A stretch of 10,973 bases of DNA from Gallionella sp. (lineage in GTDB: Bacteria > Pseudomonadota > Gammaproteobacteria > Burkholderiales > Gallionellaceae), in contig JAUYGW010000209.1 of the NCBI GenBank assembly GCA_030690245.1, forward strand, positions 1 to 10,973, written 5' to 3'. Position numbers and translations under genes: made by a program. Numbering within the stretch: position 1 is the first letter of the stretch; every line of letters begins with the position of its first letter. Positions 844 through 6,391 of this stretch are shown here, one piece after another. Below the pieces are notes generated by a model. The model was not told the origin of the DNA and made no database searches. It was given only the letters and a program-made list of their open reading frames with translations.

Positions 844-975
844 AGCCACGGATATACACGGATTGCCACCGACAAAACAAACCGCTGCGGGAAATCTGCC
901 ATTCAACAGGAAGGCGACTCGGATAAACAGGTGGCGCTCATAATAACCCGTGCTCATCTGTGTAAATCCGTGGCT
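844..975. repeat. Intergenic inverted repeat (AGCCACGGAT...ACAC type) between psiE and purC
   Basis: The left arm (844-863, AGCCACGGATATACACGGAT) and the reverse complement of the right arm (956-975, AGCCACGGATTTACACAGAT) agree at 18 of 20 positions and enclose about 92 bp. Each arm contains short internal repetitions of the ACACGGAT kind. Repeats built on CCACGGAT/ACACGGAT are common in intergenic DNA of environmental proteobacteria (recalled from general experience, not searched). The element fills most of the 809-1017 gap between psiE and purC. A 61-codon reading frame on the minus strand (829-1014) runs through it but has no recognisable protein features. Whether this is a mobile remnant or a transcript-end structure cannot be told from one copy. 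Confidence 0.7.
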
Positions 976-3023: not shown

Positions 3024-5399
3024 CTATTTGGTCAACGAGATGAATAGCTGTGGCAGTCGTTCAGGCAACTGAGCCACCCGGTCGATGATGGTGTATTGCT
3101 TACCGAAGATATCCGCGACATATTCATCGGCCTTGCGGTCGAGGTTGATGCAATAGGCATAAATGCCTTGCCGGTCCAGCTCCATTACCGCCTGGCGCGC
3201 ATCCTCGATCAGCAACCTGCCGTCCTTGCTGTCGATGTCCGATGGCTCGCCATCGGTGAGGATCAGCATCAGCTTTTTATCGGCCTGTTGCTGTTCCAGA
3301 TAGTGCGCGGCATGGCGCATCGCCGCCCCCATACGCGTGGAATAGCTGGCTTCCATCGCCGCCAGCCGCCCCTTCACGCTATCGTCCCAGCGCTCGCTGT
3401 AACCCTTGATGTGCAGGTAGCGCACGTCATGCCGGGTGTTGGAATGGAAGCCGGCAATCGCGAACGGGTCGCCCAGCTTCTCGATCGCCCATGCCAGCAG
3501 CGATACTGCTTCCTGGCTCAGCTCCAATATGGTCTGGTCGCAGCCCGCGGCCTTTTCGTTGAGCGACTCCGACAAGTCCAGCAACAGCATCACCGCGATG
3601 TTGCGCCCGCTGGTCTTGTGGCTCATGTTGATGCGCGGGTCGGGCATCGCACCGCTCTTGTAGTCGATCAGCGAGCGCAACGCGACATCCAGGTCCAGCT
3701 CGCTGCCTTCCTCCTGGTAGCGGATGCGCACTTTGTCCTGCGGCTTGAGCAGGTCGAGCATCTTCTTCAGGCGCTTGGCCAACGCGCCGTGTTTGGCCAG
3801 CAGCCGGTCGATGTCCGCCGCGTTGCCGGGCGGATGCAGTGCTTCATACACGCTCACCCAGTCCGGGCGGTAACTCTGGTTAAGATAATCCCACTCGGGG
3901 TAATGGCGCGGCGGCAGGCCTTTGATTTCCTCGCCCGGTTCGATCTTGCGCGGCGCGTCGAAGGCTTCCTCCTCGTCGCCCTCCTCGATGAATTTCCACA
4001 TCTGGCGGTTGTCGTCGCGATAGCCCACCACCGTGTCCTTGAAGTGGATTTTCGCGAGCTGGTCGCTCTGGCGGCGTGTCTGAACGATGAAGGCAACCGC
4101 CAGATCGGCGGTCTCCGGCGTGCTGGAATCGCCTTGCTGCATCAGCATATGGAAGCGCTGCGCGAACTCGGCGATCTGCGGATTTTTATAGGGATGCTGC
4201 GGGTCGAGGATCGCGCGCGACAGCATCACCAGGCGATGGCGTATACCGGACTCCTGCTCGGGATCGCAGGCATCTTCGGCGGGGATGGGATGCAATGCCG
4301 TGAAAATACGGCGCAGGCCGGGATACCCGCGCATCGCCAGATATTCCACGCGGCTGTCCTCCAGAAACTCCGCCGCCATGCGCTGGAACGGGCTGAAGTT
4401 GTCGGCGAATATTGCCGTCGTCCAGCGGCGGTGCGCAGCAATATGCGCCAGCACGGCACGATAACGATCCAATCCAGATACAACGATTTCTTCCGCAGGG
4501 AGACAATTGCTCTCTCTCCCGTTCAACGGGAGAGAGTTGGAGAGAGGGCTTTCTTGTGCACCCTCTCCCCCAACCCCTCTCCCGCTTGCGGGAGAGGGGC
4601 GTATGAAGTCGTCGTACACATCCGGCAGGCGAATGCCGAGCTTGTCGTAATAGGGGATCGGCTGGCGCAGGATGTCGAATGCGGTGGAATAGGGAATCAA
4701 TGGCTGCTCGTCATGCCATAACCCGCGCAAATACATGTCCAGCTTGCGTTCATTGTCCACCAGCAGCGTGCCGTGCCGCTCGCGCTGCAACACCGCGCGG
4801 CTGTCCGCCGATTGCAGGCTGAAGTAATCAATCTGCCGATCCGGATGATCCTTGTAATAGCGCACACCGTATTCCACCCAGTTCTTCAGCCCCGCCAGCG
4901 AAAGCTGTCCGAGCAACAGCGGGATCTGCTTGAAAAATTCCGGTAGCCCCGGGCTGGGAAAAGTCTGGTGGATGCCGTGGATCGATCCGGTGGTGCGCTC
5001 CATGAAATCGAGCACGATGTCCAGATAGCCGCGCAACTGCTGCGGCGATTGCAATCGCCGCGCGGTGGCCGGCAACGATTGCAGGAATGGTGTAATTGAA
5101 TTGCCGTTAGGCGACTTCCACATCCTGTGGATGCACTCCATGATGGAGGACAGCGCGTCTTCGCCCAGCGTCTTGGCCACCGCCGGCCATTCCTCCAGGA
5201 AGATCAGGATCGGCTCTGCGCCGCGCCCCATCTTGCCGAGGAAACGCGCGTGTTCGATGTAGGCATCCACTCCCTGTTTGGAAAGCGTCGTCAATGCCTC
5301 GTGCATGCAATCGGCAAACACTGGCTCGACGCGCGGGAAGCCGCAATCAAGCTGCCTCCAGTAGGCTTCAAGTTCGGCGGGGATGGTTGTGGCTTCCAT
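3024..5399 (-). CDS. cbbO: RubisCO activation protein CbbO (VWA domain), with an in-frame repeat insertion
   Basis: This 791-residue protein is the partner of the AAA+ ATPase CbbQ. In characterised systems the CbbQ hexamer plus one CbbO remodels inhibited RubisCO to release tight-binding sugar phosphates. The C-terminal von Willebrand A domain (about residues 600-791) has a complete MIDAS metal site: DLSES at 608-612, T688 in TRMGAAM, and D716 in ILTDGEPSD. The long N-terminal region has the soluble helical character of the CbbO/NorD family. An acidic stretch ([12 protein letters not shown]) lies in the central region. Residues about 267-299 ([14 protein letters not shown]... to ESNC) come from an 88-bp palindromic repeat and split an otherwise family-like join between VYDDFI and [11 protein letters not shown]. 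The frame is intact, so the protein may still work with a surface loop. The ATG at 5399-5397 has no clear ribosome binding site and lies 14 nt after a hairpin repeat. Without the insert it would be about 758 residues. Confidence 0.95.
4512..4599. repeat. 88-bp three-stem palindromic repeat inserted in frame in cbbO
   Basis: Three inverted repeats sit end to end. Stem 1 is CTCTCTCCCGTT (4512-4523) with AACGGGAGAGAG (4525-4536), perfect over 12 bp. The middle stem pairs TTGGAGAGAGGG (4537-4548) imperfectly with CCCTCTCCCCCAA (4561-4573) around a loop of about 12 nt. Stem 2 is CCCCTCTCCCGC (4574-4585) with GCGGGAGAGGGG (4588-4599), again perfect over 12 bp. The whole would fold as a cloverleaf. 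Repeats of this CCCTCTCCC/GGGAGAGGG kind are usually intergenic and often produce spurious peptides with [12 protein letters not shown] (recalled, not searched). The extra protein segment spans about 4503-4601, 99 bp or 33 codons, so reading frame is kept. Confidence 0.9.
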
Positions 5400-5413: not shown

Positions 5414-5461
5414 TGTAGGTCGGGCTTCAGCCCGACATGTCGGGTTAAAACCCGACCTACA
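5414..5461. repeat. 48-bp palindromic repeat in the cbbQ-cbbO spacer
   Basis: The ends TGTAGGTCGGG (5414-5424) and CCCGACCTACA (5451-5461) are perfect inverted copies. Inside are two more perfect hairpins: GTCGGGC-TTCA-GCCCGAC (5419-5436) and GTCGGGTT-AA-AACCCGAC (5439-5456). The element fills most of the 69-bp spacer between cbbQ and cbbO and ends 14 nt before the cbbO start codon on the transcribed strand. Similar GTCGGG...CCCGAC repeats are familiar from betaproteobacterial intergenic DNA (from memory). It may stabilise the cbbQ message or dampen cbbO translation. Confidence 0.88.
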
Positions 5462-5468
5462 AATGCGG

Positions 5469-6272
5469 TTACCCGAACACCGCGTCAATTGCATGATCCA
5501 GCGTATCTCGGATATCCGCATCGTCGGTGATTGGGCGTACCAGCGCCATACGGCACGCGGCGCGCGGCTCGACACCACCCTTGATCAGGGTCGCCGCATA
5601 TACCAGCAAGCGCGTCGATATGCCTTCGTCCAGGCCGTGCCCCTTCAGGTTGCGCGCCGCCTGGCCGATTTTCACCAGTTGCGCGGACAGGTCGGCTTCG
5701 ATGCCAGTTTCCTTGCTGAGGATATGCGCCTCGACATCAGCCGCCGGATAATCAAACTCGAACGCGGTAAAGCGCTGTTTGGTGGATTGCTTCAAATCCT
5801 TCAGCAGGCTCTGGTAGCCGGGGTTGTAGGAAATCACCATCTGGAAGTCTGGATGTGCCTCGAGCAGCTCGCCCTTCTTGTCCAGCGGCAGCTTGCGTCT
5901 ATGGTCGGTCAGCGGGTGGATCACCACCGTGGTGTCCTGGCGCGCTTCGACGATTTCGTCGAGGTAGCAGATCGCACCGATACGCGCGGCCGTGGTCAGC
6001 GGGCCGTCCAGCCAGCGCGTGCCGTTGGCGTCGAGCAGGTAGCGCCCGACCAGGTCGCTGGCGGTCATGTCTTCGTTGCAGGCCACGGTGATCAGCGGCT
6101 TGCCCAGCTTCCACGCCATGTACTCGACGAAGCGCGATTTGCCGCAGCCCGTCGGGCCTTTTATCATCACCGGCAGGCGCGCCGCGTAGGCGGCTTCGTA
6201 CAGCGTTATCTCATCATCCTGCGCCTGATAGAACGGCTCTTTGCTTACCTTGTACTGTTTTTTATCGATCAT
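5469..6272 (-). CDS. cbbQ: RubisCO activation AAA+ ATPase CbbQ (MoxR/NorQ-like)
   Basis: The 267-residue protein is of the usual CbbQ length. Walker A is GPTGCGKS at residues 39-46 and Walker B is ICYLDE at 101-106. A sensor-type asparagine is seen in FQMVISYNPGYQ, and STKQRFTAFEFDYP carries the expected arginine region. The protein forms a ring ATPase that acts with CbbO to strip inhibitors from RubisCO active sites. The start chosen is the ATG at 6272-6270, preceded by GAGG with a 6-nt spacer and giving MIDKKQYKV; an upstream in-frame ATG at 6308 lacks such support. The gene lies 201 bp downstream of cbbM, past a terminator-like hairpin and an inverted repeat, so expression is probably lower than cbbM or comes by readthrough. 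Its pairing with cbbO and cbbM makes the CbbQ call firm over the related NorQ and GvpN families. Confidence 0.96.
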   Translation of the reverse strand: MIDKKQYKVSKEPFYQAQDDEITLYEAAYAARLPVMIKGPTGCGKSRFVEYMAWKLGKPLITVACNEDMTASDLVGRYLLDANGTRWLDGPLTTAARIGAICYLDEIVEARQDTTVVIHPLTDHRRKLPLDKKGELLEAHPDFQMVISYNPGYQSLLKDLKQSTKQRFTAFEFDYPAADVEAHILSKETGIEADLSAQLVKIGQAARNLKGHGLDEGISTRLLVYAATLIKGGVEPRAACRMALVRPITDDADIRDTLDHAIDAVFG

Positions 6273-6318
6273 CGTAACCTCAAAAGTGCGTATTCTTCTC
6301 CCTTGCAAAAAGTTGCGC

Positions 6319-6391
6319 GGGAGCGCCGACGTCCTCGTCGGCTGGTTTTCATTTTTGGAGGCTTTATGCCGACGTCCCCGTCGGCGCTCCC
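6319..6391. repeat. Inverted repeat (GGGAGCGCCGAC type) in the cbbM-cbbQ spacer
   Basis: The left arm is 6319-6342 and the right arm 6368-6391, each 24 nt. They are inverted copies differing only in the central bases: each arm has GGGAGCGCCGACG at its outer end and CGTCGGC at its inner end. Each arm also contains a small internal hairpin, GCCGACG...CGTCGGC. The loop is 25 nt and T-rich on the plus strand. The element lies between the cbbM terminator and cbbQ. It looks like a REP- or BIME-type sequence; a repeat search of the genome would settle that. Confidence 0.85.

What the first reader, a model, noticed from the sequence alone, without database searches (positions are those of the whole stretch)
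4503..4601. Palindromic repeat inserted in frame in the RubisCO activase subunit cbbO
A three-stem 88-bp palindrome sits inside cbbO and codes for about 33 residues rich in P, S, G and R that do not resemble the rest of the protein. The extra length is 99 bp, a multiple of three, and none of the repeat codons in this frame is a stop. Both sides join as normal CbbO sequence. This resembles the in-frame palindromic elements known from Rickettsia genes. It is either a tolerated surface loop, a fresh insertion, or a step to a pseudogene. The cloverleaf RNA could also slow the ribosome within cbbO mRNA.
Basis: partly seen in the sequence, partly recalled or inferred. Interest (0 to 1): 0.75.

Follow-up and report, generated by a model that had tools for sequence, protein, structure and literature searches.

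The report
Repeat-insertion hotspot inside Rubisco activase gene
In some relatives of Gallionella, one loop of a Rubisco-activating protein is built, in frame, from unrelated families of small hairpin-forming DNA repeats, while close relatives have nothing there; a second gene shows the same, so these genomes record how repeat DNA becomes protein sequence.

Summary
The insert is real. Window 4512-4599 holds two inverted copies of a CCCTCTCCC/GGGAGAGGG hairpin repeat with a third G-rich arm, in frame in an open cbbO. Against insert-free relatives the loop (4476-4607) gives 44 residues in place of 5: net +39 aa (117 bp), not 99 bp. The repeat matches block by block the 'intrastrand triplex motif' reported as always intergenic in E. 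coli K-12 (PMC4666352). Its core lies at 70 places of this genome (up to 2 mismatches; control 3); at least 13 of 48 other copies inspected lie in recognisable genes. It is not simply a fresh insertion: the same loop carries in-frame inserts of at least three unrelated repeat families (A 53, B 14, C 12, mixed 2, short 12, empty 163 of 256 CbbO rows). States interleave among close relatives: at least 20 changes on a tree of 73. The row most identical outside the loop (96%) is empty. The family in a genome's cbbO tends to be one abundant in that genome. UvrD, the one other gene tested, has a second such loop (14 of 28 loci). Best reading: repeats enter genes often, survive in tolerant loops and turn over there. 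In-frame genic palindromes are known; one loop recycled by several families I did not find in my searches. Effect on CbbO unknown.

The parts
3024..5399 (-). cbbO (CbbO/NorD-type VWA protein, Rubisco activase adaptor), 791 aa, open frame
   Evidence: PF00092 VWA at residues 603-758; follows cbbQ and the Rubisco gene; similar by profile to solved NorD chains 9qhd/9qh6 over the C-terminal part only; no NCBIfam match
4476..4607 (-). variable loop, residues 265-308 ([44 protein letters not shown]); replaces 5 residues of insert-free CbbO
4561..4599 (-). repeat copy 1: CCCCTCTCCCGC-AA-GCGGGAGAGGGG-TTG-GGGGAGAGGG, hairpin plus third G-rich arm (intrastrand triplex motif type)
4512..4549 (+). repeat copy 2, inverted to copy 1: CTCTCTCCCGTT-G-AACGGGAGAGAG-TTG-GAGAGAGGG
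   Evidence: arms; third arm read by eye, not matched by the pattern; fold
4483..4502 (-). right border of the insert (CTCCCTGCGGAAGAAATCGT), shared by many A-type cbbO inserts, not part of the dispersed repeat
5469..6308 (-). cbbQ (AAA+ motor partner)
   Evidence: PF08406 CbbQ_C, PF07728
6474..7886 (-). Rubisco large subunit; the form (cbbM-like) is my reading, start codon not settled
   Evidence: PF00016, PF02788

Best explanation
The segment is an inverted pair of a dispersed hairpin repeat (family A, the G/C-rich intrastrand triplex motif kind) sitting in frame in a loop of CbbO that tolerates extra length. SHOWN: the loop carries in-frame inserts of at least three unrelated repeat families (A; B = GTTCGCCCTGAGCCTGTCGAAGGGC.../TTCGACAGGCTCACCACGAACGG; C = GTAGGGTGCACTCCGTGCACC.../GTGCACCCTAC), sometimes combined (L051, P0003). 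States interleave among close relatives, and the family present tends to be abundant in the same genome. The host gene stays under purifying selection. INFERRED: repeats land in or are copied into genes often; those that break a frame or a fold are lost, so inserts accumulate in a few permissive loops. Palindromes already there are unstable and are deleted, eroded to short remnants, or replaced by or nested with other repeats. Some borders are inherited or exchanged between lineages by recombination. Low stop content in the repeat's frames helps it pass as protein. The extra peptide is probably a neutral, solvent-exposed loop.
For: Anatomy and fold. Match to the published triplex motif TMECO, which also occurs as five inverted pairs. 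Dispersal: 70 places at up to 2 mismatches, control 3; 31 of 36 genomes hold the exact core. Site: five or more extra residues in 85 of 256 rows after residue 264 (position 273 of the stop-to-stop frame), against 1, 3, 3 and 5 rows at frame positions 87, 433, 434 and 624 (gaps left out of this comparison: 12 and 16, with 17 and 25 rows, because start codons are unsure; 313, 17 rows, the right part of the same loop; 68, 495, 504, 505, filled only by the distant L048/L049). Families at the site. Trees: at least 56 changes among empty/A/B/C over 256 protein rows; at least 20 over 73 DNA rows, with (window A, L028 A) sister to (L029 empty, L050 B) at 100/98. Copy number in the same genome: C carriers 16-43 further half-sites against a median of 1 in the others, p = 0.0018; B p = 0.0009; A p = 0.024 (from 51-53). 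Selection: in four pairs measured both ways, dN inside the A insert is 0.110, 0.158, 0.153, 0.076 against 0.025, 0.057, 0.074, 0.064 outside; dN/dS inside is 0.31-0.65 over six pairs (ratios worked out) against 0.09-0.11 outside for A pairs. Other genes. Second hotspot in UvrD: 14 of 28 loci. Six-frame openness: 21 of 29 copies open in all six frames against 38% of shuffles and 22% of random 39-mers.
Against: The left border YDDF[IV]xP/S is shared by most carriers of all three families. The right border CTCCCTGCGGGAGAAATCGT (up to 3 mismatches) is nearly confined to cbbO: 9 places in 7 of 22 genomes, six of them in cbbO of A carriers. So many A inserts share ancestry or were exchanged, and independent insertions are fewer than state changes. 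One insert pair (L022-L028) shows hardly more dN inside than outside (0.076 against 0.064). The flank test found no haplotype effect next to the site (z -0.84 and +0.80), but other 20-codon windows ranged from -2.55 to +3.14, so it is weak. No enzyme that moves family A is identified. The copy-number tests ignore relatedness, use 36 genomes that I picked, and count the mixed carrier G112 as B. Insert classes rest on peptide patterns that I wrote; some rows are borderline (L058, L063, L169, P0041, P0046, P0062). On the 73-row tree all states together need 21 changes against a shuffled mean of 23.5 (as low in 13 of 200): the labels follow the tree only weakly. Loop exposure is not shown: structure prediction was off.
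Confidence: 0.78

Rival explanations
1. One old insertion polymorphism spread by homologous recombination: insert-bearing and empty alleles of cbbO are exchanged among relatives, so the interleaving reflects allele swapping and not repeated insertion and loss.
For: Shared left and right borders across distant lineages; the right border is nearly confined to cbbO. L029 and L050 differ by 13/60 in the window 20-40 codons left of the site against 0-3/60 in the other five left windows, and by 10/60 at 100-120 codons right against 2-6/60 in the other right windows: possible recombination tracts.
Against: It does not explain why three unrelated families occupy the site, nor why the family matches the genome's own abundant repeats. 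No general clustering of flanks by state next to the site (weak). UvrD shows the same without association with CbbO state (Fisher p = 0.70).
Confidence: 0.3
2. The insert is functional: the loop is a tunable element (protein contact, or an mRNA structure that slows ribosomes or adjusts expression), and variation is selected.
For: Very stable hairpins in the mRNA; repeated occupation of the same loop; it lies between two conserved blocks of a Rubisco activase subunit.
Against: Unrelated peptides in different frames at one place, many empty orthologues among close relatives, weaker constraint inside the insert than in its flanks, and the same pattern in UvrD suggest tolerance. Nothing here measured expression.
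Confidence: 0.12
3. Sequence-specific targeting: the repeats or their transposases recognise a motif or hairpin at this site, and later repeats target earlier ones.
For: Nested or mixed cases read by eye (L051, P0003, L183, L027). REPs are known targets of insertion sequences (title and abstract start of PMC1525189 in a search listing). Internal inserts in CbbO concentrate in one gap.
Against: Unrelated families use the same gap, including L107, which lacks the usual left border. UvrD's site has a different sequence. Target duplications were not examined.
Confidence: 0.2
4. Assembly or binning artefact.
For: The window's genome is a draft of 357 contigs, 82.5% complete, 4.45% contamination.
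Against: The same site carries inserts in many separate assemblies, including a 2.67 Mb contig (P0043) and low-contig genomes G027 and G007; frames stay open.
Confidence: 0.03

Closest known systems
Intrastrand triplex motif TM/TMECO of E. coli and more than 260 bacterial genomes (Holder et al. 2015, PMC4666352)
   Same: Same block anatomy CCCTCTCCC-loop-GGGAGAGGG-short linker-GGG[AT]GAGGG, many dispersed copies, inverted pairs, and a reported link to local instability and deletion (abstract, passages with Table 1, sections 15 and 18 read)
   Different: TMECO is reported as always intergenic in E. coli K-12; here it is in frame in cbbO and other genes. Triplex formation was not tested. BLAST of the 100-bp segment found nothing in E. 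coli genomes at E 1e-5, so the link rests on the block pattern.
Rickettsia palindromic elements (RPE) in protein-coding genes
   Same: Palindromic repeats inserted in frame in unrelated genes (passages of PMC10969869 and PMC3733652; the original papers not seen)
   Different: RPEs are given there as about 150 bp; here an 88-bp doublet, in Gallionella relatives, with several families in one loop. No RPE sequence was compared.
Intragenic GTAG/CGTC REPs (BMC Genomics 2013, PMC3733652)
   Same: REP monomers and dimers inside ORFs of several species, many in replication and repair genes, suggested to sit in flexible linkers or loops; family C here begins with GTAG
   Different: Family A shows no GTAG or CGTC tag. 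The passages I read do not describe one site occupied by different families in close relatives
REPIN/RAYT system
   Same: Inverted doublets of short hairpins; Y1 transposase genes (PF01797, which covers RAYT and IS200-type) match in 51 of 61 genomes of the genus
   Different: Only 1 of 34 PF01797 loci read contains family A at all, about 570 bp from the central frame
Enterobacterial RU small mobile sequences found intragenically (PMC2759123, abstract and headings only)
   Same: Small mobile repeats contributing open reading frame to genes
   Different: Longer units (103-168 bp), other hosts, no site recycling in the abstract

Membership tests
Intrastrand triplex motif (TM) | hairpin of C-rich and G-rich blocks followed by a third G-rich block on the same strand | tested here: met
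   (window 4561-4598, minus strand; 34 of 51 own-genome copy loci), compared by eye with Table 1 sequences
Intrastrand triplex motif (TM) | many dispersed, closely similar copies | tested here: met
Intrastrand triplex motif (TM) | intergenic location (reported for E. coli K-12; a property, not part of the sequence definition) | tested here: not met
   cbbO itself and at least 13 of 48 other copies inside or between matches of one protein
Intrastrand triplex motif (TM) | forms a DNA triplex | not testable with these tools
   needs CD, NMR or footprinting
REPIN / RAYT-mobilised REP (family A) | inverted doublet of hairpin repeats | tested here: met
   for the cbbO copy; not counted for the other copies
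REPIN / RAYT-mobilised REP (family A) | GTAG or CGTC tag next to the hairpin | tested here: not met
   column consensus of 47 copies, read by eye
REPIN / RAYT-mobilised REP (family A) | cognate RAYT gene flanked by the same repeat | tested here: not met
   family A in 1 of 34 PF01797 loci, about 570 bp from the central frame; loci are the best hits only and RAYT was not separated from IS200-type genes
REPIN / RAYT-mobilised REP (family C) | GTAG tag and inverted doublet | tested here: met
   L023, L025, L074; paired places
REPIN / RAYT-mobilised REP (family C) | cognate RAYT gene flanked by the same repeat | tested here: inconclusive
   C-like half sites about 60-90 bp from the central frame in 2 of 34 loci, L212 and L275
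Rickettsia palindromic element | palindromic repeat in frame in genes | tested here: met
Rickettsia palindromic element | sequence homology to an RPE family | not tested
   no RPE sequences were fetched; not filed as a member

The most novel reading that the evidence does not exclude
In Gallionella relatives several unrelated repeat families keep converting themselves into protein at a small set of permissive loops. Each such loop (CbbO after residue 264, UvrD between WLKLLAG and LFAVGDDDQS) is a landing pad whose content turns over as fast as species diverge. Intrastrand triplex motifs, described in E. coli as intergenic and destabilising, are one driver of this change in coding sequence.
Probability: 0.4. 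Interest if true: 0.78.

Novelty: new variant of a known kind. Interest (0 to 1): 0.62.

Why it matters
In-frame palindromic repeats in genes have been described from Rickettsia and some REP-rich genomes. Here related species give empty, filled, mixed and short states of the same loop in a known enzyme, with the likely donor repeats in the same genome. That makes open questions testable: how small palindromes move, whether triplex motifs are mobile, how fast repeat DNA becomes protein, and which loops proteins can spare. It also warns annotators: segments such as [32 protein letters not shown] or TPCTENGARSAPY in these proteins are repeat-derived.

Tried and rejected
Rfam at gathering threshold gave no match in the window. 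A single fresh insertion was rejected by the orthologue survey, a pseudogene by dN/dS and open frames. Coupling of the two loops by lineage found no support: 9 of 16 CbbO carriers and 5 of 11 empties have a UvrD insert, Fisher p = 0.70 (G012, with one filled and one empty UvrD locus, counted as filled; G028 had no UvrD match). A mobile unit that includes the cbbO right border was rejected (A carriers G010 and G085 lack that border). A RAYT as mover of family A was not supported. A distant BLAST of the 100-bp segment against E. coli genomes gave no match at E 1e-5. Loop position could not be modelled; the only convincing solved relatives cover the C-terminal part (NorD). Rows dropped: proteins under 600-700 residues, which left 2 of 155 distinct loci rows unlabelled. 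P proteins were chosen by similarity to the query, so the 256-row frequencies are not population frequencies. The less biased count is the 105 same-family loci: 72 empty, 16 A, 7 B, 3 C, 1 AB, 5 short, 1 unlabelled (two loci from G028). Five of the 109 hit genomes were not read at the site (G062, G107, G116, G141, G142).

Full report
WHAT IS THERE. The window holds a Calvin-cycle cluster on the minus strand: Rubisco large subunit (7886-6474), cbbQ (6308-5469), cbbO (5399-3024), then fructose-bisphosphatase. The nearest named records are Gallionella and Ferrigenium; that these oxidise iron is general knowledge. Within cbbO, 4512-4599 holds two copies of a hairpin repeat in inverted orientation. 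Each is a C-rich arm, a short loop, a G-rich arm, a short linker and a third G-rich block (the third block of the 4512-4549 copy read by eye). The two third blocks pair with each other, which gives the middle stem of the 'cloverleaf' (z = -7.6). The cbbO frame is open; five of the six frames of the doublet are open.

SIZE OF THE INSERT. Insert-free CbbO reads YDD, 5 residues, GIDRYRA; the window reads YDD, 44 residues, GLDRYRA (window 4476-4607). The net gain is 39 residues.

WHAT THE REPEAT IS. The 39-bp unit matches block by block the intrastrand triplex motif of Holder et al. 2015 (PMC4666352; abstract, passages with Table 1, and sections 15 and 18 read). They report 23 copies in E. coli K-12, always intergenic, five times as inverted pairs, with raised local variability. 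In the window's own genome the core palindrome occurs at 70 places with up to 2 mismatches, control 3. I read the surroundings of 48 other copies and picked 20 spanning frames, the 19 best by codon score on both sides plus L216. For 13 of the 20 a family match runs across the repeat or matches lie on both sides in one frame: aroA-cmk (L004), uvrD (L229), a polyprenyl synthase (L224), mpl (L008), mutL (L225), a Mur ligase (L221), a glycine dehydrogenase subunit (L010), bioA (L011), gatB (L234), an MMPL (L242) and an AcrB-type transporter (L239), mutS (L002) and an Eco57I-type methylase (L006). The other seven (L007, L214, L013, L236, L016, L215, L216) are weaker or unmatched.

THE SITE IN RELATIVES. 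I collected the best 120 of 4089 homologous proteins, the best 80 of 98 named genome loci and loci from the 109 of 158 family genomes with a hit (five not read at the site). After removing duplicates and short rows, 256 CbbO rows remained: 163 without insert, 53 with family A (three reassigned by hand), 14 with B, 12 with C, two mixed and 12 with a short stretch. Classes rest on peptide patterns that I wrote; DNA was read for loci only, and some rows are borderline. The B and C peptides come from quite different palindromes. Among the 105 same-family loci, 72 are empty, 27 carry a recognisable repeat, 5 are short and 1 is unlabelled. Inserts of at least five residues occur in 85 of 256 rows at this place, against 1, 3, 3 and 5 rows at frame positions 87, 433, 434 and 624. 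Left out of that comparison: N-terminal gaps 12 and 16 (17 and 25 rows; start codons unsure), gap 313 (17 rows; right part of the same loop) and gaps filled only by the distant L048/L049.

INTERLEAVING. With the loop left out, the protein tree needs at least 56 changes among empty/A/B/C. A DNA tree of 73 rows (49 of 70 inner branches starred) needs at least 20; starred branches alone force 11 changes for 'empty', 10 for A, 6 for B and 3 for C. All states together need 21 changes against a shuffled mean of 23.5, so state follows the tree only weakly. The window's CbbO and L028 (both A) are sister to a pair of which one is empty and the other B, at 100/98. The row of highest identity outside the loop, P0006 at 96%, is empty; by path L028 (A) is marginally nearer.

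SOURCE OF THE INSERTS. In 36 genomes picked for known state (8 A, 6 B including one mixed, 3 C, 19 empty), the three C carriers hold 17-44 half-sites of C against 0-10 in the other 33. B and A carriers are also enriched (p = 0.0009 and 0.024 against all others). Relatedness was not corrected for. This points to supply from within the same genome. Against a purely local origin each time, most inserts share the left border F[IV]xP/S, and the A right border is nearly confined to cbbO, so ancestry or exchange contributes. Adjacent flanks show no haplotype effect, but the test is weak, and one close pair shows possible recombination tracts.

NOT ONLY CBBO. UvrD was chosen because the window's genome has a family A copy in it. 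Of 28 UvrD loci from 27 genomes, 14 carry in-frame inserts between WLKLLAG and LFAVGDDDQS, and 14 have four residues there. By eye 13 of the 14 look repeat-derived; L293 does not. Five of the 28 matched stretches were reported with stop codons somewhere inside; I did not follow these. CbbO and UvrD states are not associated. No third gene was tested in relatives.

SELECTION. Outside the insert dN/dS is 0.09-0.14 in eight pairs. In the four pairs measured both ways, dN inside the A insert is 0.110, 0.158, 0.153 and 0.076 against 0.025, 0.057, 0.074 and 0.064 outside; dN/dS inside is 0.31-0.65 over six pairs (ratios worked out from its numbers). The protein is kept; the loop peptide is more loosely constrained. 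The inserts are short (132 bases), so these are rough.

MECHANISM (inferred). Low stop content (21 of 29 copies open in all six frames, against 38% of shuffles and 22% of random 39-mers) and a permissive loop would let in-frame copies survive. Instability of the motif, published for E. coli, could remove or replace them. Family C carries the GTAG tag of RAYT-mobilised REPs; for A no mover was found. CbbO binds Rubisco through its C-terminal VWA domain, while the preceding ~550 residues are described as poorly conserved (PMC4660213, passages). The insert lies in that N-terminal part.

NOVELTY. In-frame palindromes in genes are known in Rickettsia and several REP-rich species (PMC3733652 and PMC10969869, passages). 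The listings of my searches (several showed only the top 8-15 of many papers) held no title or abstract start that reports one coding site recycled by several repeat families, or triplex motifs in frame in genes. The library holds only open-licence papers. I therefore call it a new variant of a known kind.

Noticed in passing
window 5414-5461 and 6319-6391: Both intergenic gaps of the Rubisco-cbbQ-cbbO cluster carry other inverted repeats: TGTAGGTCGGGCTTCAGCCCGACA/TGTCGGGTTAAAACCCGACCTACA and GGGAGCGCCGACGTCCTCGTCGGC...GCCGACGTCCCCGTCGGCGCTCCC.
   Followed up: no
window 844-975: Inverted pair AGCCACGGATATACACGGAT / ATCTGTGTAAATCCGTGGCT between two genes.
   Followed up: no
L030, L093, P0034, P0050, P0060; CbbO frame position 624 (residue 615 of the window's protein): A 14-residue insertion (SVFAGMGGKPPNSQ in the four rows printed) just after the DLSESLNE motif in five CbbO rows, with identical 42-base DNA in the distant L030 and L093; possibly exchanged.
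   Followed up: partly
L074, P0025, P0078 at CbbO frame position 434 (residue 425); also L027, L183 in the main loop: A further repeat family (ATAACCA.TGACTTGGCTG...CAGCCTAGTC..ATGGCTAGTAGTT and variants) inserted in frame.
   Followed up: partly
G028 (L028 and L168): One draft genome holds two CbbO genes, one with the A insert and one empty; could be two copies or mixed bins.
   Followed up: no
own-genome family A copies: By eye two subfamilies: a 39-bp short form and a longer form with a conserved left part (..AACGTGAA.CTCGCG.AGCGA.TCGTTTGC..) and right part (..AACGGGCATGGC..).
   Followed up: partly
L210: A PF01797 gene with GTAG-type repeats GGGCGAAT.AATTCGCCCCTAC on either side, a likely separate REP family of this genome.
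   Followed up: no
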